In this document: positions 47,406-63,170 of the stretch, one piece after another
Layout of the letters: each line of letters begins with the position of its first letter
How positions within the stretch are numbered: the stretch's first letter is position 1
From: Vicinamibacteria bacterium
GTDB taxonomy: Bacteria; Acidobacteriota; Vicinamibacteria; Fen-336
Assembly: GCA_035570235.1 (NCBI GenBank)
Contig: DATMML010000012.1
Coordinates: forward strand, 62,001-126,000
Direction: 5' to 3'
Length of the DNA stretch: 64,000 nucleotides
The notes under the pieces: generated by a model
The model's input: the letters and a program-made list of their open reading frames with translations, nothing else
What the model was told of the DNA's origin: nothing
The model's database searches: none
Translations under genes and position numbers: made by a program

Positions 47406-48401
47406 CTACCAGAACAAAAGAAGAGCGCGGTAGGAGAGCGCAGACATGGCCGCGGAAAGGGGGATGGTGAGAACCCAGGCCCAGACAATGCGCTGGGCGA
47501 CCCCCCACTTCACGGCCGAGAGCCGGCGGGTGGCGCCAACGCCAATGATCGCGCCGGTGATGGTGTGGGTCGTGGAGACCGGAATGCCGCTCAGGGTTGC
47601 TCCCATGAGGGTTAGGGCGCCCGAGGCCTCGGCGCAGAACCCTCCGAAGGGCTGGAGCTTCGTGATCCTGGTCCCCATCGTCTTCACGATCCGCCAGCCC
47701 CCGAACATCGTCCCCAAGGCAATCGCGGCGTGAGAGATGAGCACGACCCACAGCGGGACCTCGAAGGTCTTCAAGCGCCCAGCGGTCACGAGCAGGCCAG
47801 TGACGATCCCCATGGTCTTCTGGGCGTCGTTGCCCCCATGGCCGAGGCTGTAAAGGCCGGCGGAAACGAGCTGCAACCGGCGGAAGAGCTGGTCCAGCTG
47901 GAAAGGGCGCCAGCGCCGGAAGATCCAGGTCATGGAGACCATCAAAAGAAAGGCCAAGAACATACCGATGAGCGGCGCTAAGATGATGAATATGAGCGTC
48001 TTCGTCCAGCCCCCGGGCAGGATGGCGATGAATCCGGCCTTCGCCACCGCCGCCCCCGCGTAGCCGCCGATCAGCGCGTGAGACGACGAGACGGGAAGGC
48101 CGTAGTACCAGGTGATGAGGTTCCAGGCGATAGCCCCCAGTAGGCCGGCCAGGATCACCTCCTCGGTCACGATGCTCAAGTCGATCATTCCTTTGCCCAT
48201 GGTCTTGGCCACCCCTGTTCCGAGCACGAAAGCGGCCACGAAGTTGAAGAAGGCCGCCCACAGCACGGCCCTCTGGGGGGAGAGGACCCGGGTCGAGACC
48301 ACGGTCGCGATGGAGTTGGCAGCGTCGTGGAAGCCGTTGAGGAAGTCGAAGGTAAGGGCGACCAAGATGATGAAGACGAGAACCCAGGTTTCGGGAAGCA
48401 T
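47406..48401 (-). CDS. pit: PiT-family inorganic phosphate transporter
   Basis: A 331-residue membrane protein with about ten helices and the two PiT signature repeats: FDFLNGFHDAANSIATVVSTRVLSP near the N-terminus and a second copy containing SLGHGGNDAQKTMGIVTGLL in the C-terminal half. It imports phosphate with a cation at low affinity. The DUF47 gene ends 15 bases upstream, the usual pairing. The protein is shorter than E. coli PitA, which has a large internal loop, but typical for bacterial PiT proteins. Confidence 0.94.
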   Translation of the reverse strand: MLPETWVLVFIILVALTFDFLNGFHDAANSIATVVSTRVLSPQRAVLWAAFFNFVAAFVLGTGVAKTMGKGMIDLSIVTEEVILAGLLGAIAWNLITWYYGLPVSSSHALIGGYAGAAVAKAGFIAILPGGWTKTLIFIILAPLIGMFLAFLLMVSMTWIFRRWRPFQLDQLFRRLQLVSAGLYSLGHGGNDAQKTMGIVTGLLVTAGRLKTFEVPLWVVLISHAAIALGTMFGGWRIVKTMGTRITKLQPFGGFCAEASGALTLMGATLSGIPVSTTHTITGAIIGVGATRRLSAVKWGVAQRIVWAWVLTIPLSAAMSALSYRALLLFW

Positions 48402-48416
48402 GAGACCAGTCTTGGT

Positions 48417-49067
48417 TCAGGTGCTCTTAATGACGACGTTGCCGAGGACGTGTGTGTAGTCCTTGCAGGCGTCGCAGGCCTCCTCCAGCCCGTCGTAGAC
48501 CTCCTTCCATTTCAAGATCTTGATGGAGTCCCGGCCGCCCGTCTTAAAGAGGTCCGCGATCACTGTTCCGTAGAGGGCGTCCCCCTGGTTTTCAAGCTCC
48601 GAGATGCGCACGATGGATTCATGGATTTTTCGTTCGTTGTTTAGGTCCCAGACCATGGTCGTGGCCCGGTCGATCTCGACCGTCATCCCTACGATGATGT
48701 CCGCGAACTGGCGGAGGGCCTCCGGGGACTCCTCCAGCTCGAAGAGCACGAGGTATTGGGCCACGCTCTCCAAGTAGTCGAGTATGTCGTCAAGATCTTT
48801 GGCCAGGGAGCGGATGTCCTCGCGGTCGAGGGGCGTTATGAACGTGGAGTTCAAGGCCTCAAAGATCTGGCGCGTGGTCTGGTCGCCTTCGTGCTCTAGA
48901 GCCTTGAGCTGGACGGTCTTGACGCGGCGCTCCTCCAGACTGGCTGCGTTGGAGATCTCCGAGAAAAGACGGGCCGCCCGCAGCAGGGTCTGAGTGTCCT
49001 TGGCGAGGAGTTCGTGAAATCGTTCCTCCTTGGGCATGAACCAGCGGATCACTTGGTCAGCCTTCAT
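48417..49067 (-). CDS. DUF47 (PhoU-like) accessory protein of PiT
   Basis: A 216-residue helical protein related to PhoU (DUF47/TIGR00153 type). It starts MKADQVIRWFMPKEERFHELLAKD and has HEGDQTTRQIFEALNSTFITPLDREDI (about 75-101), the metal-binding segment of this family, and LENQGDALYGTVIADLF near the end. It is thought to control the neighbouring PiT transporter. A good AGGAGGGG ribosome site precedes the ATG. It lies 104 bases after phoR on the same strand. Confidence 0.9.
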   Translation of the reverse strand: MKADQVIRWFMPKEERFHELLAKDTQTLLRAARLFSEISNAASLEERRVKTVQLKALEHEGDQTTRQIFEALNSTFITPLDREDIRSLAKDLDDILDYLESVAQYLVLFELEESPEALRQFADIIVGMTVEIDRATTMVWDLNNERKIHESIVRISELENQGDALYGTVIADLFKTGGRDSIKILKWKEVYDGLEEACDACKDYTHVLGNVVIKST

Positions 49068-49171
49068 GGCACAACCCCTCCTGGCCCCGGAGAACTCTGG
49101 AAGCTACGGTGATGATCGGGTAAACGCGGCGGGATGCTACCACGGGGGAGTGTCGATGGGCGGGGTCGGGC

Positions 49172-50956
49172 TCAGGTCGCGGTGTGCTCCTCACCGGAGG
49201 GTACGGTGACCGTGAAACGCGCGCCCTTGCCGGGTGCGCTCTCCACCCTCACCGTGGCTCCCATGCCTTCCGCGAGGTGCTTCACGATGGCTAGGCCGAG
49301 GCCGGTCCCCCCCAGCTCGCGGCTGCGGGCTTTGTCAACCCGGTAGAAGCGCTCGAAGATCCGGGGAAGATGCTCGGCCGCGATGCCGGGGCCGTCATCG
49401 CGGACCTCCAGAACCGCGCTTCCGTCGGGGCCGGGCGCGCTCGTGACCTCGACTTCCCCCCCTTCGGGTGTGTACTTGACCGCGTTCTCCACTAGGTTCT
49501 CGAGGATGCGCCGGAGGCGATCGGCATCGGTCATGATGACGGGGGCGGAATGGTCAACGCGACGGAGCGAGAGTTCCTTGCGCCCGGCCAGGCTCGCGAA
49601 CGAGGCCACCACGTCCTCCACCACTTCCGCGGGCGCCACTTCCTCCCAGCGCGGGGGCCGTTCCCCGGACTCCAGCCGGGAGAGCTCGAGCAGGTCCTCG
49701 ACGAGGGCGGCCATCCGGTCGGCGTGGGTCCGGATCTTGCCCAAGAAGCGCTGGGAGGTGGGCGGGTCCAGGGCCGCCCCGTCCTCCAGCGCCTCCACGA
49801 AACCGCGGATGGAGGTTAACGGTGTGCGCAGCTCGTGAGAGGCGTTGGCTACGAAGTCGCGGCGCACCTGATCCAAACGCCTGCGCTCGGTGGCGTCGTG
49901 GAAGGTGAGGACGGCGCCGTGGGGCGTCCCTTCCGCTCCCGGGAAAGGGACCCCGGTCATGGCGTACACGCGTCGCGGGTGGCGGAACTCCACCTCCACC
50001 GCCCGGCGGGCACCCGTGCGCAGCACTCCTTCCAGGATCTCGCCCACCTCCCGCTGCCGCACGACCTCCACATAGTGCCGCCCAACGGGTTCGCGCAGCT
50101 CCAACCCCCGACGAAGCGCGTTGTTGGCCAGGATCACGTTGCCTCGATGGTCCACCACCAGCACCCCGTCCTCCATCGCGGAAAGGATGGCGTCCTGTCG
50201 GGCCTGATCACGGGCGATCTCAGACAGGCGATCCTGGAGTTGGTCCGCAGAGCGATTGAGGATTTGGGCCAGCTCGCCTAGCTCGTCGTGACGGCGCACC
50301 CGAGTGCGGGCCGAGAGATCGCCGGCCGCGAACCGGCGGGCCGCGTCCATGACCTCCTGCAGGGGACCGGCCAGGGAGGAAGAGAGGGCCAAGGACAGAA
50401 TGGCGGTTATGCCAAACGCCATGAGGAGGGCCAGCCCCACCGCCCGCTGGAGGGCCCCCACTTGGTCGTCGACCGCTTCCAAGGTCAGGGCCACCCGCGA
50501 CACGCCGACCACCTTTCCTTCATGGTAGACGGGCACCGCGGCGTAGAGCAGGTCCCGGTCCACGGTCGCGCTGTGGCGCATGGATAGGCCCACTCCCGTG
50601 GCTAGGGCGGCCTGTACCTCCGGCCGGTACTTGTGGTTCTCGAGCGCGAGCAACTCAGGACCGGAAACCGCGGTGTCCGCGACAACCCGTCCGTCCAGGG
50701 CCACGATCGTGACCCTGGCCCGGACCTCGCGTGCCGCCTGGTCCACCAAGGGGTCCAGCTCCTCGGGGGGGGCTCCGCGGGCCAGGCCCTCCTCCACCAC
50801 CCGCGCCATGAGACGGGCTTCCGCGAGTAGGCTGTCCCGGGCCTGGTCCAAGGCCCGCTGCCTCAAGCCGGGCCCGGCCAAGAGGAGCACGACGAGCAGA
50901 GCGGCGCTGGAGGCCGCGAGCGCGGTCACCACCATGCGCCCGCGGAGGGTCTTCAT
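49172..50956 (-). CDS. phoR: PhoR-type sensor histidine kinase
   Basis: A 594-residue membrane kinase. There are two membrane helices (about 9-29 and 173-195) around a periplasmic or extracytoplasmic sensor domain, then HAMP (196-248) and PAS (about 253-355). HisKA follows with the phospho-acceptor H374 in NASHELRTPLTSI, then HATPase (NLVENAVKYTPEGG, DDGPGIAAEHLPRIFERFYR, GGTGLGLAIVKHL). E. coli PhoR has only a very short periplasmic part, so the sensor domain here is a difference. The ATG at 50956 overlaps the phoB stop (ATGA). The upstream extension to 51094 lies inside phoB and is non-coding in this frame. Confidence 0.9.
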   Translation of the reverse strand: MKTLRGRMVVTALAASSAALLVVLLLAGPGLRQRALDQARDSLLAEARLMARVVEEGLARGAPPEELDPLVDQAAREVRARVTIVALDGRVVADTAVSGPELLALENHKYRPEVQAALATGVGLSMRHSATVDRDLLYAAVPVYHEGKVVGVSRVALTLEAVDDQVGALQRAVGLALLMAFGITAILSLALSSSLAGPLQEVMDAARRFAAGDLSARTRVRRHDELGELAQILNRSADQLQDRLSEIARDQARQDAILSAMEDGVLVVDHRGNVILANNALRRGLELREPVGRHYVEVVRQREVGEILEGVLRTGARRAVEVEFRHPRRVYAMTGVPFPGAEGTPHGAVLTFHDATERRRLDQVRRDFVANASHELRTPLTSIRGFVEALEDGAALDPPTSQRFLGKIRTHADRMAALVEDLLELSRLESGERPPRWEEVAPAEVVEDVVASFASLAGRKELSLRRVDHSAPVIMTDADRLRRILENLVENAVKYTPEGGEVEVTSAPGPDGSAVLEVRDDGPGIAAEHLPRIFERFYRVDKARSRELGGTGLGLAIVKHLAEGMGATVRVESAPGKGARFTVTVPSGEEHTAT

Positions 50957-51642
50957 CCCTCTGCCTCCGTGGCCAGGCGGTAGCCCAGCGACTTGACGGT
51001 GACGATTGAAGGGGCGAGAGCGGGGATCTTCTCGCGCAGGCGCCGCACGTGCACATCCACCGTCCGTGTCCCCTCTACGTAGGAGTAGCCCCACACGTTC
51101 TCCAGCAAAGCTTGCCGAGAGAGGACCCGGCCGTGGGCCTCCAAGAGGGCGACGAGGAGGGCGAACTCCTTGGCCGTGAGGTGGACGGGACGCCCCTCCC
51201 AGCGCACGGTGTGGCGCGTGCGGTCCACCTCGAGGGCACCGAGGGTGAGGGGCGCCTCCGCTTCGTCCATCCGCTCCAGGCGCCGGAATAGAGCCCGCAC
51301 CCGCGCCACTACTTCCTTCGGACTGAAGGGCTTCACCACGTAGTCGTCGGCCCCCATCTCCAGGCCCACGATGCGGTCCGCCTCGTCCCCCCGGGCCGTG
51401 AGCATGAGCACCGGGATTCCCCGTGTGCGCTTGTCACGCCGGACCTCGACGCAGAGGGAGAGACCGTCCCAGCCCGGGAGCTGGAGGTCGAGGACGAGCA
51501 GCTGGTAGCTCTCGGCCCGGATCCGCTCCAGGGCCCGCTTGCCGTCGTCCGTAGAATCCACCGCCCAGCCGTCGCCCTTCAGGTAGTGGGCCAGCAACTC
51601 CACGATGTCGGGATCGTCTTCAACGATCAGGACCCGCCGCAT
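50953..51642 (-). CDS. phoB: PhoB-type response regulator paired with PhoR
   Basis: A 229-residue OmpR-family regulator. The receiver has VLIVEDDPDI, the phospho-acceptor D52 in LVLDLQLPGWDG, and KPFSPKEVVARVRALFRR. The winged helix has LTAKEFALLVALLEAHGRVLS, ENVWGYSYVEGTRTVDVHVRRLREKI and TVKSLGYRLA. It is a typical partner for the overlapping PhoR kinase and leads the operon phoB-phoR-DUF47-PiT. It differs from the pst-linked regulator at 19086-19841 in lacking an N-terminal extension, so the two may have different targets. Confidence 0.9.
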   Translation of the reverse strand: MRRVLIVEDDPDIVELLAHYLKGDGWAVDSTDDGKRALERIRAESYQLLVLDLQLPGWDGLSLCVEVRRDKRTRGIPVLMLTARGDEADRIVGLEMGADDYVVKPFSPKEVVARVRALFRRLERMDEAEAPLTLGALEVDRTRHTVRWEGRPVHLTAKEFALLVALLEAHGRVLSRQALLENVWGYSYVEGTRTVDVHVRRLREKIPALAPSIVTVKSLGYRLATEAEG

Positions 51643-51742: not shown

Positions 51743-52642
51743 ATGCGCATTGTGGTCACGGGGGGTACCGGTTTCATCGGCGGGGAGGTGGTCGACCGAT
51801 TGCGGGAGACGCCCGGCGACGAGATCGTGGTCACGAGCCGGGACCCTGAGCGCCGCGATCGCTGGGGCGGCCGGGTCACGATGGTGCAAGCCTTCGCCGG
51901 GGACCCCATTTCGCTGGGCCGGGCCTTCACGGGAGCCGAGGTCGTGGTCCATGCCATCCAGTTCCCCAACCATCCGGTGGAGGACCCCGCCCGGGGACGT
52001 ACCTACCTGGAGGTGGACGGGAAGGGAACCCGGGTGGCAGCCACAGTGGCCAAGAACTTGGGCGTGCGCCGCTTCGTCTACCTATCGGGAGCGGGGGCAG
52101 GGCAGGGCCGGCCCCAGCCCTGGTTCCGGGCCAAAGACATGGCGGAGACGGCCATCAAGGAGACAGGGATGGAGTATGCCCTGCTCCGTCCGTCCTGGAT
52201 TTACGGGCGGGGCGACCGCAGCATGAACCGGTTCTTGTTTTTCTGCCGTTACCTGCCGGTGGTGCCCGTGATCGGGGATGGCAAGACGACCGTCCGCCCC
52301 GTCTCCGTGACGGATGTGGCCCGCTGCGTGGCGGATGCGGTCCGGCGGGAGGATGCCAAGGACAAGGCCCTGGAGCTGGGAGGATCCGAGCGCCTCAGCA
52401 TGGACGAGATCATTCGCACCCTGCAGAAAGTCCTCGGCCGGCGCCGGCCGCTTCTCCATCATCCCGCCCCCCTCATGAAGCTCCTGGTGCGGCCGATGGC
52501 CCTGCTTCCCGAACCCATGCTCTCTCCCACCGCCATCGACTTCATCCTCCAGGAGGTCGACTTCGACCCCCGTCCCGCCATGGAGTACTTCGGCTTCGCC
52601 TTCCGCCGGTTGGAGGATGGCCTGCGCGAGTACGTCCGCTAG
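51743..52642 (+). CDS. NAD(P)-binding atypical SDR (complex I NDUFA9-like)
   Basis: A 299-residue protein with the Rossmann motif VTGGTGFIGGEVVDRL at residues 5-20 and the atypical SDR layout: VVHAIQFPNHPVEDPARGRTYLEVD, then RRFVYLSGAGAG and YALLRPSWIYGRGDRSMNRFL. It belongs to the NDUFA9-like group of NAD(P)-binding proteins. The active-site tyrosine of classical SDRs is not obvious, so it may bind nucleotide without catalysis. The start at 51743 has a GGGAGG site and its own promoter. ispH begins 40 bases after its stop. Confidence 0.82.
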   Translation: MRIVVTGGTGFIGGEVVDRLRETPGDEIVVTSRDPERRDRWGGRVTMVQAFAGDPISLGRAFTGAEVVVHAIQFPNHPVEDPARGRTYLEVDGKGTRVAATVAKNLGVRRFVYLSGAGAGQGRPQPWFRAKDMAETAIKETGMEYALLRPSWIYGRGDRSMNRFLFFCRYLPVVPVIGDGKTTVRPVSVTDVARCVADAVRREDAKDKALELGGSERLSMDEIIRTLQKVLGRRRPLLHHPAPLMKLLVRPMALLPEPMLSPTAIDFILQEVDFDPRPAMEYFGFAFRRLEDGLREYVR

Positions 52643-52682
52643 ACTCACGGTCAGGTCCCGGCCTGGGTTATGCTGGAGCCTG

Positions 52683-53888
52683 ATGAGTCAGACCTACTTC
52701 CAGAAGGGCTTCAACCTGAAGGCGGTGGTGGGGCCAGTCCTGGCCCAGAACTACCACAGCCGCGTCGTGGATCGACTCAAGCAGCTCGACCACGCGGCCC
52801 GGGCCGGCAACCTCGTGCTGCGACTGGCCCGGGAGTTCGGGTTCTGCTACGGCGTGGACCGCGCGGTGGAGTACGCCTACGAGACGCGGGAGAAGTTCCC
52901 GGAGCGACGGATCTTCCTTTCCGGCGAGATCATCCACAACCCGGACGTGAACCTCCGCATCGAGCGCCTGGGCATCCGCATCCTCCCCGAGAGGGAGGAT
53001 GCCCCCACCCGCTACGAGGAGGTCCGGGCGGAGGATGTCGTGCTGCTTCCTGCCTTCGGGGTCACGGTGGCGGAGATGGAGCTCTTGCGGGCCCGGGGCT
53101 GCGTGCTCGTGGACACCACCTGTGGCAGCGTGCTCAACGTCTGGAAGAACGTTCACCAGTATGCTCGGGACGGCTTCACGGCCGTCATCCACGGCAAGCA
53201 CTACCACGAGGAGACCAAGGCCACCGCTTCCCAGGCCCTCACTCATCCGGGCGGGCAATACCTCTGCGTGCGGGACCGGGAGGAGGCGGGGGCGGTGTGC
53301 GCCTTCATCCGGGGAGAGGAGGGGCGGGAAGAGATGCTCGCGCGGTTCCGGCACGCCGCCAGCCCGGGCTTCGACCCCGACCGCGACCTCGCCCGCATCG
53401 GCCTCGCCAACCAGACCACCATGCTTATGAGCGAGAGCCTGGATATACAGGAGATGCTGCGCCTGGCCGTGCGCGACCGCTACGGCGAGGCCGAGCTCGC
53501 GGTCCGCTTCCGAGCCTTCGACACCATCTGCTCCGCCACCCAGGACCGCCAGGACGCCGTCCTTCGGATGCTGGGGACGGGGGGCCTCGATCTCATGGTC
53601 GTGATCGGGGGCTACAACAGCAGCAACACCCAAGCCCTGGCCAAGATCTGCGCGGAGCGATTGCCCACCTATCACATCAGCGGGCCCGAGGGCGTGCAGG
53701 GAGACGGCATCCGCCATCGGCCGGTGGGCTCGAAGCATGATGCGATCAGCTCCGCTTGGCTGCCTGCGGGGGCGGTGACGGTGGGCCTGACCGCGGGGGC
53801 CTCGACCCCCAACAACGTCGTGGGCGACGTGGTGGAGCGGATCCTGTCCCTGCGGGGCCACACTGTGGAGGACCTGGAGCGGGCCTGA
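52683..53888 (+). CDS. ispH: 4-hydroxy-3-methylbut-2-enyl diphosphate reductase IspH, long form
   Basis: A 401-residue iron-sulfur enzyme that makes IPP and DMAPP in the last step of the MEP pathway. The three cluster cysteines are C55 in FGFCYGVDRA, C147 in VDTTCGSV and C283 in FDTICSATQDRQ. GYNSSNT supplies diphosphate contacts. It has an N-terminal extension of about 45 residues (SQTYFQKGFNLKAVVGPVL...), and the total length resembles the cyanobacterial and plant form rather than the E. coli form of about 316 residues. It supplies the isoprenoid units that the UbiA and lipid-carrier genes downstream depend on. A GGAG site precedes the ATG. Confidence 0.95.
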   Translation: MSQTYFQKGFNLKAVVGPVLAQNYHSRVVDRLKQLDHAARAGNLVLRLAREFGFCYGVDRAVEYAYETREKFPERRIFLSGEIIHNPDVNLRIERLGIRILPEREDAPTRYEEVRAEDVVLLPAFGVTVAEMELLRARGCVLVDTTCGSVLNVWKNVHQYARDGFTAVIHGKHYHEETKATASQALTHPGGQYLCVRDREEAGAVCAFIRGEEGREEMLARFRHAASPGFDPDRDLARIGLANQTTMLMSESLDIQEMLRLAVRDRYGEAELAVRFRAFDTICSATQDRQDAVLRMLGTGGLDLMVVIGGYNSSNTQALAKICAERLPTYHISGPEGVQGDGIRHRPVGSKHDAISSAWLPAGAVTVGLTAGASTPNNVVGDVVERILSLRGHTVEDLERA

Positions 53889-55790: not shown

Positions 55791-58079
55791 GTGCGATCCC
55801 TCTTCATCATCCCCGCCCTGGTCGCCTCGCTGGTTCCCGTCGTTTGCGCGGTCGCGGCCGAGCCCACCGACCCGCAGATCGGGCCCGCCCCGAAGAAGGC
55901 CAAGCCCAAGCGGCCGCCGCCCGAGCCCGGCGAGGGTCTCCCCCCCGGCGAGTTCCGCCTGCGCGCGGACACCCAAGAGGAGGTCTCCAAGGGGCACTAC
56001 CAGGCCCGCGGCTTCGTGGACCTCCGCACCAGCGACGCGCGCCTCCAGGCCGATCGCCTCGACCTCTACGAGACAGAGAACGCCGACGGCACCAAGAGCC
56101 GGCGGGCGGTCGCGGAGGGGAACGTGGTCTTCATGCGGGGAGAAGAACGCATCGCGGGGGACCGCCTGGAGATGGATATGGACTCGGGGGAGGGGACGTT
56201 CGAGAACGCCCTCGGGTTCGTCGAGCCGGGAGTCTTCGTGGAGGGACGGAAGATCTTTCGCCTGGACGCCAAGACCTACCGGGTGGAGGATGGAAAGTTC
56301 ACCTCCTGCGCCCAGCCCAATCCGCGCTGGATGTTCTCCGCCTCCTCCGCCCGCATCGAGGTGAACGACAAGATCGTGGCCACCAACGCGATCTTCAGGG
56401 TGAAGTCCTTCCCCGCCTTCTACCTGCCCGTCATCGTCTATCCCATCCGCCAGGACCAGCGATCGACCGGCTTCCTCCTCCCCCACTTCGGATACTCCAC
56501 CTTTCGCGGCTTCAACGTGGGGGACGGCTTCTTCTGGGCCATGGGTCGCAGCGCCGACCAGACCTTCTCTTTCGACAACTACTCGAGCTACGGGAAGGGC
56601 TTCGGCCATGAGTTCCGCTACCTGGAGGACGCCCCCTCCCGGGGCACCCTCCATTCCTACTTCTTCCTTCCCCAGGGAAGCACGCAGTGGGACTACAACC
56701 TCGACTGGAACGCCCTGCAAATGCTCCCCGGGAAGTTCCAGGCCACCCTTTCTCTCCAGGTCTACAGCAGCCAGGCGTTCCAGGAGCAATCTCAGGACAA
56801 CTTCAACCTGGCCACCTCCCGCAGCACGCACCGCGCCCTCACCCTGCAGCGGAACTTCGGCTCCACGGTGTTCCTGGTCTCCGCGGACACCACCGACACC
56901 TTCTTCGGCGACACCGCGGTCGTGAACCGCCACCTGCCCGGGATCAGCCTGCGCCGCCTCCCCCAGCAGATCGGCGGCGGCTTCATCTTCGGGTACGAGG
57001 CCCGTGCGGACGGGCTGGGCTACGGCAACGACCAGACGGTGGACAGCTACTTCCGTTTCGACCTCGCCCCCGAGGTCTCCCGCCCTCTTTCCCTGAGCTT
57101 CCTCCAGGTCACGCCCACCGCCCGCTTCCGCTTCACCCGCTATTCCGCCACCCTCGCCTCCTCCGATAGCACCGGAACCGGCCCCACCGCCATCACCGGC
57201 CCCGCCCGCGACCGGCCCCTATTCGAGGGCACGGTGGACCTGCGGGGGCCCACCTTCTCGCGGGTCTTCGGCGATGTCTCCGACCCCGGGCGTTTCAAAC
57301 ACGTGATCGGACCGGAGATCACCTGGACCTACCGGACCCCCGTCACCGACTTCAACTCGATTCCAAAGTTCGACGGCGCCGACTATCTCCTCGGCACTGA
57401 CCAGATCACCTACGCGCTGGTTCAACGCATCCTGACCAAGCGCCCGGGCCCCACGGGCAAGCTCGTGTCCAACGAGTTCTTCTCCTGGCGGCTCGCCCAA
57501 ACCTACTATGTACAGATCGCGGAGGGGCAGAACAACTTCGACCCCAACTACTCCTCCTCCGCCTTCGGGCCGGGCTTCCAGCCCGAGCACCTCTCCCCCT
57601 TGCTCTCCCGCATGCGCATCCGTCCGAACCCCAACCTCTCCGGAGACTTCAACCTGGAATACGACGTGAACTTCAAGCAGCTTCGGACCATCGGGCTCAC
57701 GAGCTCCGTCGGCGGTGCGTGGGGGAACCTCCAGGCCGGCTGGTCCCGCTCGGTGCGGTTGTCGGATAACCCCGCGGACCGGGTGGTGGCCGCAGACTGG
57801 CTGCGCGGCGGGATCCACCTCGAGCCGGTGGCCCGCATCGGGGTGGACGCCTCCGCCAACTACGACCTGGTCCAGAACGTCTGGGTGCAGCTCTTGGGCC
57901 GCGTGCGGTACGAGGTCCAGTGCTGCGGTTTCGTGGCCGAGTACCTCAAGTACAACTACAACTCGCGCGTCGACAGCCAGTTCCGCTTCCAGATCGAGCT
58001 CGCCAACGTGGGCTCCATCGGAAATTTCAACGGCGACGACGTGGCGGCGCGGCGGGCGGGTCTGGCGGGATACCGTTGA
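55791..58079 (+). CDS. lptD: LPS-assembly outer-membrane protein LptD (OstA)
   Basis: A 762-residue protein with a signal peptide (about 1-23, ending CAVAA). It has an OstA/LptA-like beta-jellyroll (about 55-190, ARGFVDLRTSDARLQADRLDL and AVAEGNVVFMRGEERIAGDRL) and a large beta-barrel. The barrel entrance matches LptD at FRVKSFPAFYLPVIVYPIRQDQRSTGFLLP. Cysteines near SCAQPNPRWMF and the C-terminal QCCGF could form the disulfides LptD needs. It inserts lipopolysaccharide or a similar glycolipid into the outer leaflet, evidence for a diderm envelope. The start is a GTG without a clear ribosome site; TACTCT lies 12 bases upstream. The next gene overlaps its stop (TTGA). Confidence 0.9.
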   Translation: MRSLFIIPALVASLVPVVCAVAAEPTDPQIGPAPKKAKPKRPPPEPGEGLPPGEFRLRADTQEEVSKGHYQARGFVDLRTSDARLQADRLDLYETENADGTKSRRAVAEGNVVFMRGEERIAGDRLEMDMDSGEGTFENALGFVEPGVFVEGRKIFRLDAKTYRVEDGKFTSCAQPNPRWMFSASSARIEVNDKIVATNAIFRVKSFPAFYLPVIVYPIRQDQRSTGFLLPHFGYSTFRGFNVGDGFFWAMGRSADQTFSFDNYSSYGKGFGHEFRYLEDAPSRGTLHSYFFLPQGSTQWDYNLDWNALQMLPGKFQATLSLQVYSSQAFQEQSQDNFNLATSRSTHRALTLQRNFGSTVFLVSADTTDTFFGDTAVVNRHLPGISLRRLPQQIGGGFIFGYEARADGLGYGNDQTVDSYFRFDLAPEVSRPLSLSFLQVTPTARFRFTRYSATLASSDSTGTGPTAITGPARDRPLFEGTVDLRGPTFSRVFGDVSDPGRFKHVIGPEITWTYRTPVTDFNSIPKFDGADYLLGTDQITYALVQRILTKRPGPTGKLVSNEFFSWRLAQTYYVQIAEGQNNFDPNYSSSAFGPGFQPEHLSPLLSRMRIRPNPNLSGDFNLEYDVNFKQLRTIGLTSSVGGAWGNLQAGWSRSVRLSDNPADRVVAADWLRGGIHLEPVARIGVDASANYDLVQNVWVQLLGRVRYEVQCCGFVAEYLKYNYNSRVDSQFRFQIELANVGSIGNFNGDDVAARRAGLAGYR

Positions 58080-59056
58080 AGCTCCTCGTCACCGGGGTGG
58101 CCGGCTTCGTCGGCGGGCACCTCGTGCGCTTCCTCCGGGAGGAGCAGCCGGGGGTCGAGGTCTTCGGGCTCGTGCGTCCCCACGGGAGCGCCCCCCCCGC
58201 CCTGGCCGGCCTCCACATCGTGGAGGCCGACCTCAACGACCCCTCCTCCGTGGAGGCGGCCCTGGACACCGTGCACCCCGACCGCATCGTCCACCTGGCC
58301 GGGCAGTCGAGCGTGCACCAGTCTTGGCTGGACCCCGGAGGGACGCTGCGCACGAACGTGCTCGGCCTCGTTCACCTGCTGGACGCGGTGCGGGGGCGCG
58401 GCCTGCGGCCGGCGGTACTGGTGGTAGGGAGCGCGGAGGAGTACGGGATGGTGGCGGACAGCGAGCTTCCCGTCAACGAGGAGGCGCCCCTGAGGCCGCG
58501 CTCCCCCTACGCGGTGAGCAAGGTGGCCCAGGGCTTCCTCGCCCTGCAGTACGGCCCCGCGGGCGGGATGAGGATCGTGCGTACCCGGACCTTCCCCCAC
58601 ACCGGCCCCGGGCGGGGGGAGACCTTCGCCGAGAGCTCCTTCGCGCGGCAGATTGTGGAGATCGAAACGGGGCGCCGCCCCCCCGTGCTTCACACCGGGA
58701 ACCTGGAGGCGGTGCGGGACTACACGGACGTCCGGGACGTGGTGCGCGCCTATTGGGCCCTGCTTGAGCGGGGGGAGGCGGGCGGGGTCTACAACGTCTG
58801 CAGCGGAAGGGGCCGACGCATCCGGGAGCTGGTGGACGCCCTGGTCGCGGCTGCGGGGACTAAGGTGGAGGTGGCGGTGGATGTCGAGCGCCTGCGCCCC
58901 GCGGACGTGCCCGCCCAGGTGGGGGATCCGCGCCGGCTTCGCGAGGCCACGGGCTGGGAGCCGCGCGTGCCGCTGGAGCAGACCCTGCGCGACCTCCTCC
59001 AGGACTGGCGGGAGCGCTTGGGGTCGGAAGCCCGGGCTCCCTTGGGCGGGCGGTGA
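58076..59056 (+). CDS. NDP-sugar epimerase/dehydratase (GDP-mannose 4,6-dehydratase-like SDR)
   Basis: A 326-residue extended SDR. The nucleotide motif VTGVAGFVGGHLVRFL sits at residues 5-20. VHLAGQSSVHQSWLDPGGTLRTNVLGLVHLLDAV and the catalytic YAVSK follow, then RTFPHTGPGRGETFAESSFARQI, as in GDP-mannose 4,6-dehydratase and related sugar-nucleotide enzymes. It probably makes a deoxysugar or epimer for the envelope. Translation starts at a TTG that overlaps the lptD stop (TTGA); a longer frame to the left overlaps lptD and is not protein-like. The stop overlaps the next GTG. Confidence 0.85.
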   Translation: MKLLVTGVAGFVGGHLVRFLREEQPGVEVFGLVRPHGSAPPALAGLHIVEADLNDPSSVEAALDTVHPDRIVHLAGQSSVHQSWLDPGGTLRTNVLGLVHLLDAVRGRGLRPAVLVVGSAEEYGMVADSELPVNEEAPLRPRSPYAVSKVAQGFLALQYGPAGGMRIVRTRTFPHTGPGRGETFAESSFARQIVEIETGRRPPVLHTGNLEAVRDYTDVRDVVRAYWALLERGEAGGVYNVCSGRGRRIRELVDALVAAAGTKVEVAVDVERLRPADVPAQVGDPRRLREATGWEPRVPLEQTLRDLLQDWRERLGSEARAPLGGR

Positions 59057-60039
59057 AGATCCTCCTCACCGGGGGCACCGGCTTCCTGGGCAAGAACGTG
59101 GCCCGGCGCCTGGCCGCCCATGGTCATACGCTTCGCGTCCTGGTCCGCGAGGGCAGCAACCTCGACGGCCTACCCCCCGGGGCGGAGACCGTGCGGGGAG
59201 ATGTGACGCAGGGGGACTCGCTCCGGCGTGCGGCCGCGGGGTGCGAGGCGGTCGTGCATCTGGCCGCCCTCGTCAAGAGCTGGGTGCCGGACCCCGCGCG
59301 TTTCGAGGCCGTGAACGTGGGTGGCCTCAAAAACGCCCTGGGCGCGGCCCGGGAAGCCGGGGCGCGCCTCGTCTACACCTCCTCCTTCATCGCCGTGGGC
59401 CCGGCGGGGCCCCTTCCCGCGGACGAGACCCGGGTGCATCCGGGTGGGGTCTTCCGGAACGCCTACGAACGGACGAAGGCCCAGGCCGACGGCGTGGCGC
59501 GGGAGGCGGCGGCGGGGGGGGAGGACGTGGTCATGCTCTACCCGGGGGTGGTCTACGGCCCGGGAGAGATGACGGATGGGAATCTGGTGGCGAAGATGGT
59601 GGCCGATCACCTCCGGGGACGGTTTCCCGGGCTCATCGGTCCCGGAGACCGCCTCTGGTCCTATGCCTTCGTGGAGGATGTGGCGGAGGGGCACGCCCTC
59701 GCCCTGGAGCACGCTGGTCGGGGCGAGCGCTACTTCCTCGGGGGGGACAACGTCTCCATGAACGGCTTTTTTGCACTCCTCCAGGAGGTGGCCGGCGTGC
59801 CCCCCCCCCGCCGCCACATCCCCTACGGCGTGGCCTCCCTGCTCGGCCGCGGGCTCGTGCTCTGGGCGGAGGTGACCGGCCACCCCCCGCTTCTGACCCA
59901 CGAGGTCGTGAACGTGTTCCGCGAGCACTGGGCCTACTCGAGCACAAAGGCGGAGCGCGAGCTGGGCTACCGGCTCACGCCCCTCCGCGAGGGCCTGCGG
60001 CGGACGGTGGACTGGCTGCGGACCCAAGGGATCGCCTGA
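59053..60039 (+). CDS. NAD-dependent epimerase/reductase (HpnA / dihydroflavonol-reductase-like SDR)
   Basis: A 328-residue extended SDR with TGGTGFLGKNVARRLAAHGH (6-25), VHLAALVKSW, LVYTSSFIAVG, the catalytic pair in NAYERTKAQAD, and VMLYPGVVYGPGEMTDGNLV. The pattern fits the dihydroflavonol-4-reductase, 3-beta-hydroxysteroid dehydrogenase and hopanoid-associated HpnA group, which often act on isoprenoid or sterol-like alcohols. Its place directly before the prenol-kinase fusion makes an isoprenoid substrate attractive but unproven. The GTG start overlaps the previous stop (GTGA). Confidence 0.82.
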   Translation: MKILLTGGTGFLGKNVARRLAAHGHTLRVLVREGSNLDGLPPGAETVRGDVTQGDSLRRAAAGCEAVVHLAALVKSWVPDPARFEAVNVGGLKNALGAAREAGARLVYTSSFIAVGPAGPLPADETRVHPGGVFRNAYERTKAQADGVAREAAAGGEDVVMLYPGVVYGPGEMTDGNLVAKMVADHLRGRFPGLIGPGDRLWSYAFVEDVAEGHALALEHAGRGERYFLGGDNVSMNGFFALLQEVAGVPPPRRHIPYGVASLLGRGLVLWAEVTGHPPLLTHEVVNVFREHWAYSSTKAERELGYRLTPLREGLRRTVDWLRTQGIA

Positions 60040-60041
60040 GC

Positions 60042-61409
60042 GTGGCCGTTCCCCGGAGCGAGCTCGGCCGCAAGGTGATCCACATCGGGTGCGTGGGGTT
60101 CGCCTTCCTCCTTCGGGACATGACCCCCGGGGAAGCGGCCCTGATGGCGGTGGCAGCCTTCCTCTTCAACTGGCAGGTGCTGCCCCGCATCGGCGGGAAG
60201 AGCCTCTGGCGGGATGCGGACCGCGAACGCGGTTACCCGGGGGGCATCCTTCTTTATCCGCTCGCGGTTCTGGGTCTCATCCTCTGGTTCTGGCATTCCC
60301 TCCCCCTCGCCGCCGCCGCCTGGGGCATCCTGGCCTTGGGCGACGGCATGGCCTCTCTGGTCGGCCAGGCCCTGGGCGGACCGCGCCTGCCTTGGAACCC
60401 CGCGAAGGGATGGGCGGGCTCCTTCGCCTTCGTAGTCTTCGGCACCCTGGCCGCGGCCGTGCTCCTGGCTTGGACGGCCCGCCTTCCCCTGGACCTCCAC
60501 GCCTGGCACGCGGGGCGGACGCTTGGGGTGAGCCTCGCCGCCGCCCTTTTGTGCGCTCTCGTGGAGTCCGTGCCCACGACCCTCGACGACAACCTGACCG
60601 TGCCCCTGGCCGCGGCTCTCGCCCTTCCCCTCTTCGCCACCGCGGACCCCTCCCTGCTTCTGGGCGACCCCGACCTGCTGCCCCGTGCCCTCCTCGGCCT
60701 TGGCCTGAACGGAGCCTTGGCCCTCGTCTCCTTCTGGGCGCGCGCCATCGACATCCCTGGGGCCGTGTCGGGGCTCGTGATCGGAACCACCATCACCACC
60801 GCGCTGGGCCTGCCCTTCTTGGCCTTGTTGGTGGTCTTCTTCCTCCTGGGGAGCGCGGCCACCCGCCTGGGCTACGCGCGCAAGGCGGGGCGGGGGATCG
60901 CGCAGGAGCGGGGCGGGGTGCGGGGCTGGCGGCACGCCTGGGCCAACGGGGGGGTCCCCGCGTTTCTGGCCCTCATGGCCGGGCTCGCCCCGGGGGGTCT
61001 GCGCGACCTGCTCATCCTGGCCTACGCCGCCGCCGTGGCCACCGCCGCCGCCGACACCTGCTCATCCGAGGTGGGCAAGGCCTACGGCCGGCGCACGTTC
61101 CTTATGACGACCCTTCGCCCGGTGCCCCCCGGCACGGAGGGGGCGGTGAGCATGGAGGGGACGCTGGGTGGGTTGGGGGGGGCCATGATCGTGGCCGGGG
61201 TGGGGGTGGCCCTGGGCCTCTACGGCTGGGCCTCCGCTGGTCTCGTGTGCCTGGCAGGCGCGCTTGGGAACCTCGCCGAGAGCCTGATCGGCTCCGCGGG
61301 CGTGCGCCGGGGCTGGATGGGGAACGATCTCCTGAACGCCGTCAACACCGCGATCGGAGCGGGCCTGGCCGTTCTCTTCGTGGCCGCCGCGTCCTGGGCA
61401 AAGCTCTAA
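60042..61409 (+). CDS. Fusion of VTE5/SEC59-like polyprenol kinase and DUF92 (VTE6-like) polyprenyl-phosphate kinase
   Basis: A 455-residue membrane protein with two kinase folds. Residues 1-215 match the phytol/dolichol/DGK1-type CTP-dependent kinase family: SELGRKVIHIGCVGF (6-20), LGDGMASLVGQALGG with NPAKGWAGSFAF (99-130), and ESVPTTLDDNLTVPL (175-189). Residues 225-455 match DUF92: SAATRLGYARKAG (271-283), WANGGVPAFLAL, AAADTCSSEVGKAYG (336-349), GTEGAVSMEGTLGG and GNLAESLIGSAG to NDLLNAVNTAIGAG (409-441). In plants VTE5 makes phytyl-phosphate and VTE6 (DUF92) makes phytyl-diphosphate. This protein may do both steps on a bacterial prenol (inference). The GTG start is two bases after the previous stop. 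Confidence 0.84.
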   Translation: MAVPRSELGRKVIHIGCVGFAFLLRDMTPGEAALMAVAAFLFNWQVLPRIGGKSLWRDADRERGYPGGILLYPLAVLGLILWFWHSLPLAAAAWGILALGDGMASLVGQALGGPRLPWNPAKGWAGSFAFVVFGTLAAAVLLAWTARLPLDLHAWHAGRTLGVSLAAALLCALVESVPTTLDDNLTVPLAAALALPLFATADPSLLLGDPDLLPRALLGLGLNGALALVSFWARAIDIPGAVSGLVIGTTITTALGLPFLALLVVFFLLGSAATRLGYARKAGRGIAQERGGVRGWRHAWANGGVPAFLALMAGLAPGGLRDLLILAYAAAVATAAADTCSSEVGKAYGRRTFLMTTLRPVPPGTEGAVSMEGTLGGLGGAMIVAGVGVALGLYGWASAGLVCLAGALGNLAESLIGSAGVRRGWMGNDLLNAVNTAIGAGLAVLFVAAASWAKL

Positions 61410-61420
61410 GCGGGGCCTCG

Positions 61421-62332
61421 ATGAGCAAGGTCAAGGCCTACCTCGACCTCGCCCGCCCCTTCACCCTCCTGCCCCCGGCCCTGGGTGTCCTGAGCGGGGC
61501 GGTGACGGCCTGGGGCGCGGGCGGGACTCGGCCCCCTCTCACCCTCTCCCTGATACAGCCCGTCCTCTACGGCACCCTCATGGCCGCGGTCCTCAACACG
61601 GCCAGCAACGCCATCAACCAGATCTACGACCTCAACATCGACCGGGTGAACAAGCCGAAGCGGCCGCTGCCCAGCGGCACCCTCACCACGAGCGAAGCCT
61701 GGGGCCTGACCCTCGCCTCCTTCGCGGTGGCCTGGGTGCTGGCCTGGCTCGCCGCTCCGCAAGGGCGCCACGAGTGCTTCTACATCGTTCTCTTCACGAG
61801 CGTCCTGGTCTGGGCTTATTCCGCTCCCCCCCTGAGGACCAAGCGCCACGGGGTCTGGGCCAACGTCACCATTGCGATTCCGCGGGGGTTGCTCCTCAAA
61901 GTGGCGGGCTGGTCCACGGTGAAGACCATCCTAGGCGTGGAGCCGTGGTACATCGGGGCCATCTTCGGCCTCTTCGTCCTGGGCGCTTCCTCCACCAAAG
62001 ACTTTGCGGACATCGAAGGGGACCGGGCGGACGGCTGCCAGACCCTCCCCATCCTCTACGGGGTGAAGAAGGCGGCCTGGATGATCACGCCGTTCTTCGT
62101 CTTTCCCTTCCTGCTCATTCCCATCGGGGTGTGGCGGGGGATCCTCACCGGGGACCCGTCGCTCCTCCTGATCCTGGGCCCCGCCCTCGTCGGCTACGGG
62201 ATCTACACGAGCTACTTGCTGGTGCGCAAGCCGGAGGAGCTCGCCTTCACCGAGAACCACCCGTCCTGGACGCACATGTATCTAATGATGATGGTGGCCC
62301 AGCTGGGGTTCGCCTTGGCTTATATTTTCTAG
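61421..62332 (+). CDS. UbiA-superfamily prenyltransferase
   Basis: A 303-residue enzyme with about nine helices. The first Asp-rich motif is NQIYDLNIDRVNKP (N66, D70, D74) and the second is KDFADIEGDRADG (D194, D197, D201). Both hold magnesium and the prenyl diphosphate. The motifs resemble homogentisate prenyltransferase, chlorophyll synthase and digeranylgeranylglyceryl-phosphate synthase more than UbiA or MenA themselves; the acceptor cannot be read from sequence. It starts 11 bases after the kinase fusion, which could supply its diphosphate substrate. A hairpin follows its stop. Confidence 0.86.
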   Translation: MSKVKAYLDLARPFTLLPPALGVLSGAVTAWGAGGTRPPLTLSLIQPVLYGTLMAAVLNTASNAINQIYDLNIDRVNKPKRPLPSGTLTTSEAWGLTLASFAVAWVLAWLAAPQGRHECFYIVLFTSVLVWAYSAPPLRTKRHGVWANVTIAIPRGLLLKVAGWSTVKTILGVEPWYIGAIFGLFVLGASSTKDFADIEGDRADGCQTLPILYGVKKAAWMITPFFVFPFLLIPIGVWRGILTGDPSLLLILGPALVGYGIYTSYLLVRKPEELAFTENHPSWTHMYLMMMVAQLGFALAYIF

Positions 62333-62375: not shown

Positions 62376-63170
62376 GTGTCCATAACGTATGGACTGGACC
62401 AAAGCTGGTACGGCGAACGGGATCGGCTCCGATCCCTATCCGTGCTCTTCGACCCGACCACCCTGGAGTTCTGCGGGCGCTCCGGGCTGCGCGAAGGCGC
62501 GCACGTGCTGGAACTCGGCGCAGGTGCCGGCAGCGTTGCCGAAGCAATGGCGGACCGAGTTGGGTCTAGCGGCCGCGTCGTGGCCGTCGACCGCGACACC
62601 CGGTTCCTCAGAGACCTCGCCGACCGCGTCGAGGTGCGGGAGATGGACTTGCTGCGCGAGCCGCTGCCCTCCGGTCCCTTCGATCTCGTCCACGCCCGGC
62701 TGCTCCTCGGACACCTCGGTGATCCCCTGCCCGTGCTCAAGCGATGGGTCGGAGTGCTGAGGCCTGGCAGCTGGCTCGTCGTGGAGGATCTCGATACCGC
62801 CGGTTGCGACGAGTCGATCCCTCCGGCCGCGGGCTTTTCGGTTGTGGCCAGAGCGCTGTTCGACGAGCTGGCCCGCCGTGGCTTCGATCAGCGCCTCGGC
62901 CTTCGCTTGCCCGCGCTGCTCTCCGACGCGGGGCTCGAGGCCGTTGAGGCAATCACCATTCGGCCGCGGAAGCGAGGGGATGTCGCGAACGGCCTGCCCG
63001 CCTGGGATCTCTTCGGCGCCCAGGTGGCGCCGGCGCTCCTTGCCGGGGGGCGAGTCACGCCGGAGGAGCATGCCGAGTTCACGCGGGTCACGCACGATCC
63101 CGCTACGTGGCTCGGAATGCCTGCGCTCACGACCGCGCGCGGTCGGCGACCGACCGTGGCTTCGTCGTAA
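62376..63170 (+). CDS. Class I SAM-dependent methyltransferase
   Basis: A 264-residue methyltransferase. The SAM-binding motif I is VLELGAGAGSVAEAM (about 44-58), motif II is VVAVDRDTRFL, and the later motifs are FDLVHARLLLGHL and VLRPGSWLVVEDLD. The C-terminal part has no specific signature; related proteins methylate quinones, lipids or antibiotics. A role in modifying the product of the UbiA enzyme is possible but rests only on neighbourhood. The GTG at 62376 has a poor ribosome site, so translation could start further in. Confidence 0.8.
   Translation: MSITYGLDQSWYGERDRLRSLSVLFDPTTLEFCGRSGLREGAHVLELGAGAGSVAEAMADRVGSSGRVVAVDRDTRFLRDLADRVEVREMDLLREPLPSGPFDLVHARLLLGHLGDPLPVLKRWVGVLRPGSWLVVEDLDTAGCDESIPPAAGFSVVARALFDELARRGFDQRLGLRLPALLSDAGLEAVEAITIRPRKRGDVANGLPAWDLFGAQVAPALLAGGRVTPEEHAEFTRVTHDPATWLGMPALTTARGRRPTVASS

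What the first reader, a model, noticed from the sequence alone, without database searches (positions are those of the whole stretch)
60042..62332. Single-protein prenol-to-prenyl-diphosphate salvage kinase next to a UbiA prenyltransferase
One frame joins a VTE5/SEC59-like alcohol kinase and a DUF92 (VTE6-like) phosphate kinase, each with its conserved motifs (seen). In plants these two activities act in sequence on phytol and feed tocopherol synthesis through a UbiA-family enzyme (established). Here the fusion lies 11 bases before a UbiA enzyme whose motifs resemble homogentisate prenyltransferase or chlorophyll synthase. The simplest reading is a bacterial module that turns a free prenol, its own or scavenged, into a diphosphate and transfers it to an acceptor (inference). 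An alternative is recycling of undecaprenol or dolichol for the linked envelope genes.
Basis: partly seen in the sequence, partly recalled or inferred. Interest (0 to 1): 0.82.

Follow-up and report, generated by a model that had tools for sequence, protein, structure and literature searches.

The report
Fused prenol kinase feeding a UbiA enzyme
Many soil and water bacteria that do not appear to photosynthesise carry one membrane protein made of two lipid-alcohol kinases, set beside a prenyl-attaching enzyme, which looks like a bacterial version of the plant phytol-recycling route and offers testable genes for a bacterial prenol salvage pathway whose genes are largely unassigned.

Summary
One GTG-started frame (60042-61409, 455 aa) joins a VTE5/SEC59-like half to a DUF92 (VTE6-type) half and ends 11 bp before a UbiA gene (61421-62332). 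It is not chance. In 297 genomes of the phylum, all 83 that carry this UbiA subfamily also carry the fusion (15 of the other 214 do); 54 have UbiA directly 3' of it. Catalytic positions are 95-100% conserved in 90 fusions. In Planctomycetota the halves often occur as separate adjacent genes in operons with the same UbiA and an HpnA-like SDR, so kinase 1, kinase 2, UbiA and SDR form one module.

Best reading: prenol to monophosphate to diphosphate, passed to UbiA, the counterpart of plant (FLDH-)VTE5/FOLK-VTE6-UbiA. Substrate and acceptor are unproven. The tocopherol version is disfavoured (no 4-hydroxyphenylpyruvate dioxygenase here). UbiA is nearest to archaeal DGGGP synthase and chlorophyll synthase but below every curated cut-off; separate UbiA enzymes serve quinone and heme O. 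Undecaprenol recycling fits less well, because that carrier is used as a monophosphate.

The SEC59-DUF92 fusion was already reported in Methanosarcina (PMC5898192); the conserved bacterial module with a new UbiA subfamily is what is new.

The parts
60042..61409 (+). Fusion protein, 455 aa, GTG start: VTE5/SEC59-like prenol kinase half plus DUF92 prenyl-phosphate kinase half
60042..60674 (+). N half (residues 1-211), VTE5/SEC59/PolK-like; conserved R10-K11-x-x-H14 clamp, G100-D101, W118, K122, G126, E175, D183-N184
   Evidence: clamp residues compared with PMC10849223; PF01148 only weakly in homologues
60714..61358 (+). DUF92 domain (PF01940, residues 225-439); conserved K281, R294, D338-T339, E343, G345, S370, G373-T374, N432
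   Evidence: (1.3e-50)
61421..62332 (+). UbiA-family prenyltransferase, 303 aa, unclassified subfamily
61607..61642 (+). First Asp-rich motif of UbiA (N63..D70..D74)
   Evidence: invariant in 18 homologues
62000..62023 (+). Second Asp-rich motif of UbiA (D194FADIEGD201)
   Evidence: D194, D197 and D201 invariant
59053..60039 (+). Extended SDR, HpnA/3-beta-HSD-like with TGxxGFxG and YxxxK; stop 2 bases before the fusion; recurs with the kinases in Acidobacteriota, Planctomycetota, Krumholzibacteriota and Fischerbacteria
   Evidence: (TIGR03466 239 bits, below its 367.65 cut-off)
57920..59056 (+). GDP-6-deoxy-mannose reductase (RMD)-like SDR; the homologous part begins near 58076. Conserved neighbour, probably a separate GDP-rhamnose role
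   Evidence: (2pk3, 2e-94)
55791..58079 (+). LptD-like outer-membrane protein, conserved upstream neighbour in Acidobacteriota

Best explanation
The 455-aa protein is a tandem of two related CTP-dependent-type lipid kinases. The N half phosphorylates a free prenol (most likely C15-C20) to the monophosphate and the C half phosphorylates that to the diphosphate. The diphosphate is then used by the neighbouring UbiA enzyme, which attaches the prenyl chain to a still unknown acceptor. The SDR encoded just before it may deliver the prenol by reducing a prenal, as farnesol dehydrogenase FLDH does in plants. The cells can also make isoprenoids de novo, so this is a recycling or salvage branch dedicated to the UbiA product. 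Shown here: sequence, conservation, tandem fold relation, operon structure and co-occurrence. Inferred: both phosphorylation steps (from VTE5/FOLK/PolK and VTE6), donor chain length and hand-over to UbiA. Guessed: the SDR role.
For: DUF92 half 1.3e-50. RKxxH clamp as in PfPolK (PMC10849223), with R10, H14, D101, K122, E175, D183, N184, D338, E343, S370 and N432 conserved at 98-100% in 90 fusions. Phylum survey: 83 of 83 genomes with this UbiA carry the fusion and 15 of 214 without it do; 54 directly adjacent, 51 on the same strand; none of 27 DUF92-only genomes has this UbiA. Starting from UbiA instead, 47 of 80 loci have the fusion 15-229 bp upstream, and 27 of the 33 other genomes carry DUF92 elsewhere or a few genes away. 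In Planctomycetota the halves are separate adjacent genes in operons N-C-UbiA, often followed by the HpnA-like SDR, or C-UbiA-N; 45 of 61 UbiA genomes have the kinases against 12 of 185 without it. Fusion and UbiA distances correlate, Mantel r 0.81 over 55 loci. UbiA is nearest to the GGPP/phytyl-PP-using DGGGP synthase and ChlG. VTE5 and VTE6 accept geranylgeraniol and its phosphate (PMC13415981). A two-kinase product, a diphosphate, is what UbiA enzymes use.
Against: No activity was measured. The N half misses the Pfam cut-off for its superfamily. Sixteen Planctomycetota genomes have a UbiA of this profile without a detectable kinase pair, and 15 Acidobacteriota genomes have the fusion without this UbiA, so the dependence is not absolute. 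In Acidobacteriota the SDR slot is filled about half the time by a GDP-6-deoxy-mannose-reductase-like protein, which points to sugar chemistry rather than prenal reduction. The source of the prenol is unknown. Genomes are phylogenetically related, so Fisher p values overstate independence; Mantel r also reflects shared ancestry.
Confidence: 0.7

Rival explanations
1. Recycling of a long-chain polyprenol (undecaprenol, dolichol-like) for envelope glycan assembly; UbiA is a neighbour or uses a polyprenyl carrier.
For: LptD, RMD, RmlA and RmlD genes sit in the same acidobacterial clusters; exopolysaccharide genes flank the Krumholzibacteriota copy; archaeal DUF92 is linked to uppS (PMC5898192); the N half is SEC59-related.
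Against: Glycan carriers work as monophosphates, so a second kinase making the diphosphate would be pointless for direct recycling (established knowledge). The sugar genes and LptD drop out in Planctomycetota while UbiA, both kinases and the SDR stay together. The UbiA is not a DPPR synthase; that enzyme is encoded elsewhere in this genome.
Confidence: 0.13
2. The halves are not kinases but cytidylyltransferases (CdsA-like) that make CDP-activated lipids for a UbiA-linked phospholipid.
For: Both halves fall near the CTP_transf_1/CdsA superfamily by weak profile similarity and published HHpred (PMC5898192).
Against: The DUF92 family contains VTE6, genetically assigned as phytyl-phosphate kinase, and the RKxxH clamp in the N half is that of prenol kinases (PMC10849223, PMC9782597). 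UbiA enzymes use prenyl diphosphates, not CDP-lipids.
Confidence: 0.08
3. Tocopherol or plastoquinone-like route: the prenyl diphosphate goes to homogentisate.
For: Plant precedent; UbiA has some similarity to homogentisate phytyltransferase (89 bits).
Against: That score is far below the 226-bit cut-off. No HPPD in this genome, and none above the cut-off in 11 of 14 UbiA-bearing genomes tested. Geranylgeranyl reductase is not consistently present: G010 and G125 have UbiA and the fusion but only fragmentary matches.
Confidence: 0.03
4. The fusion is a general salvage enzyme and the tie to UbiA is only neighbourhood, with no shared substrate.
For: Fifteen Acidobacteriota genomes have the fusion without this UbiA; fusion and UbiA lie on different contigs in 25 of 83 genomes.
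Against: Presence in all 83 UbiA genomes even when unlinked, and repeated re-assembly of N, C and UbiA in different gene orders in another phylum.
Confidence: 0.06

Closest known systems
Plant/cyanobacterial VTE5 (phytol kinase) and VTE6 (phytyl-phosphate kinase, DUF92) feeding UbiA enzymes such as HPT
   Same: Same two-kinase logic, DUF92 second kinase, UbiA acceptor enzyme; RKxxH clamp in the first kinase
   Different: Fused in one protein; bacteria with no HPPD; UbiA of another, unclassified subfamily; co-encoded SDR
SEC59-DUF92 fusion Mbar_A3310 of Methanosarcina barkeri (arCOG02245; Makarova et al. 2015, PMC5898192)
   Same: Same domain order, SEC59-like N-terminal domain plus DUF92
   Different: Archaeal; context there is uppS; function only predicted; no UbiA or SDR module described in that paper
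Farnesol recycling in plants: FLDH (SDR) and FOLK (PMC13415981, PMC9782597)
   Same: SDR plus prenol kinase acting on C15/C20 prenal and prenol
   Different: Genes not clustered or fused; cytosolic second kinase unknown; relation of the bacterial SDR to FLDH not tested here
Archaeal DGGGP synthase (6m31/7bpu) and chlorophyll synthase (9sau)
   Same: Closest solved relatives of the UbiA partner by sequence and fold
   Different: About 25% identity over the fold match; below all curated cut-offs; no GGGP synthase in this genome
[quoted passage not shown]
   Same: Two sequential prenol phosphorylations in a prokaryote
   Different: The papers consulted give the activities; no gene assignment was found in them

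Membership tests
DUF92 / VTE6 (PF01940) | Match to the Pfam profile above its curated cut-off | tested here: met
   172.5 bits against 27.5
DUF92 / VTE6 (TIGR00297) | Match above the NCBIfam equivalog-type cut-off | tested here: not met
   172.6 bits against 205.85
VTE5/FOLK/PolK prenol kinase | Arg-Lys-x-x-His clamp near the N terminus | tested here: met
   R10 and H14 at 98% in 90 fusions; position 11 is K, or R or Q in a few; motif from PMC10849223
VTE5/FOLK/PolK prenol kinase | Conserved hinge glutamate | tested here: inconclusive
   E175 is 100% conserved, but its equivalence to PfPolK Glu179 was not aligned
CTP_transf_1 superfamily (PF01148) | Profile match of the N half | tested here: inconclusive
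   None in the window protein; 7.4e-5 in one of 28; 2.5e-4 and below cut-off in a stand-alone N half
VTE5/VTE6 kinases | CTP-dependent phosphorylation of prenol and prenyl phosphate | not testable with these tools
   needs an enzyme assay
UbiA superfamily (PF01040) | Profile match and two Asp-rich motifs | tested here: met
   128.7 bits against 34.2; D70, D74, D194, D197, D201 invariant; fold match
Homogentisate phytyltransferase | NCBIfam equivalog cut-off, and HPPD in the genome | tested here: not met
   89.3 against 226 bits; no HPPD
Chlorophyll synthase ChlG/BchG | NCBIfam cut-off | tested here: not met
   122.2 against 313 and 111.9 against 212.3 bits
DGGGP synthase | NCBIfam cut-off, and GGGP synthase in the genome | tested here: not met
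   98.4 against 296 bits; no PcrB/GGGPS
HpnA hopanoid-associated epimerase | TIGR03466 cut-off | tested here: not met
   239.3 against 367.65 bits
Plant farnesol dehydrogenase FLDH | Orthology to At4g33360 and NADH-dependent farnesal reduction | not tested

The most novel reading that the evidence does not exclude
The module makes an undescribed class of prenylated envelope lipid (UbiA attaching a recycled prenyl chain to a polar lipid or sugar-linked acceptor), found across parts of Acidobacteriota and Planctomycetota with representatives in several other phyla, and recycled through its own SDR and dual kinase.
Probability: 0.35. Interest if true: 0.82.

Novelty: new variant of a known kind. 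Interest (0 to 1): 0.64.

Why it matters
[quoted passage not shown] Here is a compact, repeatedly conserved gene set from non-model bacteria, with both kinases in one polypeptide whose steps can be separated by mutation. It also defines a UbiA subfamily with no assigned product in organisms whose membrane lipids are poorly known, and offers a single-gene tool for making farnesyl or geranylgeranyl diphosphate from fed alcohols.

Tried and rejected
Foldseek of the fusion model against the PDB gave no match, and sequence searches of the PDB with the protein and its alignment gave none, so no solved template exists for either half by these methods. The genome-collection scan with the fusion alignment could not be seeded; the UbiA alignment was used instead. 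A tblastn of plasmids found one DUF92 fragment only. Tocopherol route rejected (HPPD absent). Archaeal-type ether lipids rejected for this genome (no GGGP synthase). A constant need for geranylgeranyl reductase rejected. A dedicated third prenyl diphosphate synthase was followed up: it adjoins UbiA in only two genomes, too few to build on. Other neighbours (radical SAM, M48 peptidase, NYN, ClpA, DUF2157) vary by lineage and were set aside. VTE5, FOLK and FLDH sequences could not be fetched, so direct alignment to them was not done. One pairwise comparison of the halves with 28 sequences was weak; with 90 sequences it was E 7.7e-5 to 5.6e-4 with hhalign probability only 30-62%, against 0.04-0.34 for UbiA controls, so homology of the two halves is suggestive here and rests also on PMC5898192.

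Full report
What is there. The window is part of a 5.7-Mb draft genome. Its UbiA is 84% identical to one in a Vicinamibacteria MAG, so the source is most likely an acidobacterium of that class (inference). Reading along the + strand: LptD-like gene 55791-58079, a GDP-6-deoxy-mannose reductase-like SDR ending 59056, an HpnA-like extended SDR 59053-60039, the fusion 60042-61409 and UbiA 61421-62332. The SDR stop and the fusion start are two bases apart, and the fusion stop and UbiA start are 11 bases apart. All run in one direction.

The fusion. Residues 225-439 match DUF92 at 1.3e-50. The N half matches nothing in Pfam, although one homologue and one stand-alone N half reach PF01148 weakly. Ninety full-length homologues keep R10, H14, D101, K122, E175, D183, N184 in the N half and K281, R294, D338, T339, E343, S370, N432 in the C half at 98-100%. 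The N-terminal R-K-x-x-H matches the charged clamp Arg29-Lys30-His33 described for the Plasmodium prenol kinase (PMC10849223). Profile comparison of the two halves aligns their core motifs in order (GD..A...G with DT.SSE.G; E....DN with ES.....DN) at E 7.7e-5 to 5.6e-4, against 0.04-0.34 for UbiA controls; hhalign's probability is only 30-62%. Makarova and colleagues found by HHpred that DUF92 is related to cytidylyltransferases, and described a Methanosarcina protein with an N-terminal SEC59 domain and the two aspartates kept (PMC5898192). So the picture is two related kinase domains in tandem. AlphaFold2 predicts both halves with high confidence and a confident relative placement (pLDDT 93.4, pTM 0.91). 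No solved structure resembles it.

Link to UbiA. A search of 297 genomes of the phylum found the fusion or an N-half-bearing form in 98 and the UbiA subfamily in 83. All 83 are among the 98. In 54 the UbiA gene lies directly 3' of the fusion, 51 on the same strand; 25 have them on different contigs. None of 27 genomes with DUF92 alone has this UbiA. Starting from UbiA in a named genome collection gave 80 loci: 47 have the fusion 15-229 bp upstream. Of the 33 others, 27 genomes have DUF92 elsewhere or a few genes away, mostly in frames of 440-500 aa. Distances in the two proteins correlate (Mantel r 0.81, 55 loci), which partly reflects shared descent.

A second phylum gives the strongest evidence. 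In Planctomycetota (246 genomes) the halves occur fused in some genomes and as two neighbouring genes in others. The split genes lie in the order N-C-UbiA, in several cases followed by the HpnA-like SDR and preceded by an alkaline-phosphatase-superfamily phosphodiesterase (L192, L194, L196, L210, L211; without the SDR L193, L197, L198), or C-UbiA-N (L201-L204). Fused, split and permuted arrangements that keep the same members argue for one pathway. Across that phylum 45 of 61 UbiA genomes have the kinases against 12 of 185 others. Krumholzibacteriota have UbiA, the SDR and a DUF92 gene within a few genes (L086, L095). The LptD and rhamnose genes, by contrast, are regular neighbours only in the acidobacterial-type clusters and in Fischerbacteria, so they are probably not core.

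The UbiA partner. Both Asp-rich motifs are invariant. It scores below every NCBIfam cut-off. Nearest solved relatives by profile and by fold are archaeal DGGGP synthase and, by sequence, chlorophyll synthase, which use C20 prenyl diphosphates. The same genome has four other UbiA proteins: a TIGR01475-type polyprenyltransferase likely for the quinone (288 against 180.8 bits), heme O synthase, decaprenyl-phosphate phosphoribosyltransferase, and one unassigned. So this one is not needed for those roles. HPPD is absent here and GGGP synthase is absent, which disfavours homogentisate and archaeal-type acceptors.

Mechanism. From VTE5/FOLK/PolK and VTE6 (PMC9782597, PMC10849223, PMC13415981), the inference is prenol to prenyl phosphate to prenyl diphosphate, which UbiA then uses. 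A diphosphate is the donor form for UbiA but the wrong form for a glycan carrier, which is why undecaprenol recycling ranks lower. The SDR would fit a prenal/prenol oxidoreductase such as plant FLDH, but in about half of the acidobacterial loci its place is taken by an RMD-like protein, so that step is a guess. Four prenyl diphosphate synthases and IspH in the window show that the cell also makes its own chains.

Novelty. The domain fusion itself was reported in an archaeon in 2015, and the VTE6 function was first predicted by comparative genomics (PMC3223725). What I did not find described in the papers searched is the bacterial module with its own UbiA subfamily and SDR, its fused and split forms, and its breadth. 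I rate it a new variant of a known kind. The acceptor, and hence the product, remains the open question.

Noticed in passing
52617-53888 (+): IspH of the PRK13371 (NF009911) type, which from general knowledge is the plant/cyanobacterial kind; it passes the equivalog cut-off (506 against 440 bits).
   Followed up: no
L192, L194, L196-L198, L200, L210, L211 and L073, L090, L091, L098: A 700-820 aa alkaline-phosphatase-superfamily phosphodiesterase (PF01663) with predicted membrane segments accompanies the UbiA or kinases in Planctomycetota; it could release or trim the prenyl product.
   Followed up: partly
L170 (G015:C40) and L171 (G198:C58): A short-chain prenyl diphosphate synthase lies next to the UbiA gene in two genomes; most UbiA-bearing genomes sampled have three or four such synthases, those without it two.
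   Followed up: partly
L092, L097, L145, L160: RmlA, RmlD and RMD-like genes form a deoxysugar-nucleotide cassette just upstream of the fusion in some relatives.
   Followed up: partly
62376-63170 (+): A class I methyltransferase follows UbiA in this genome but not in relatives' clusters.
   Followed up: partly
L086 and L095: Krumholzibacteriota carry UbiA, SDR and a stand-alone DUF92 inside an exopolysaccharide cluster, with no N-half gene seen next to it.
   Followed up: no
G330, G351, G397, G415, G418 and 11 other Planctomycetota genomes: UbiA of this profile without a detectable kinase pair; either diverged kinases or another donor source.
   Followed up: no
47406-51642 (-): Phosphate transport and regulation block (PiT-like permease, PhoU-like protein, PhoR/PhoB-like pair) read from the ORF translations only.
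   Followed up: no
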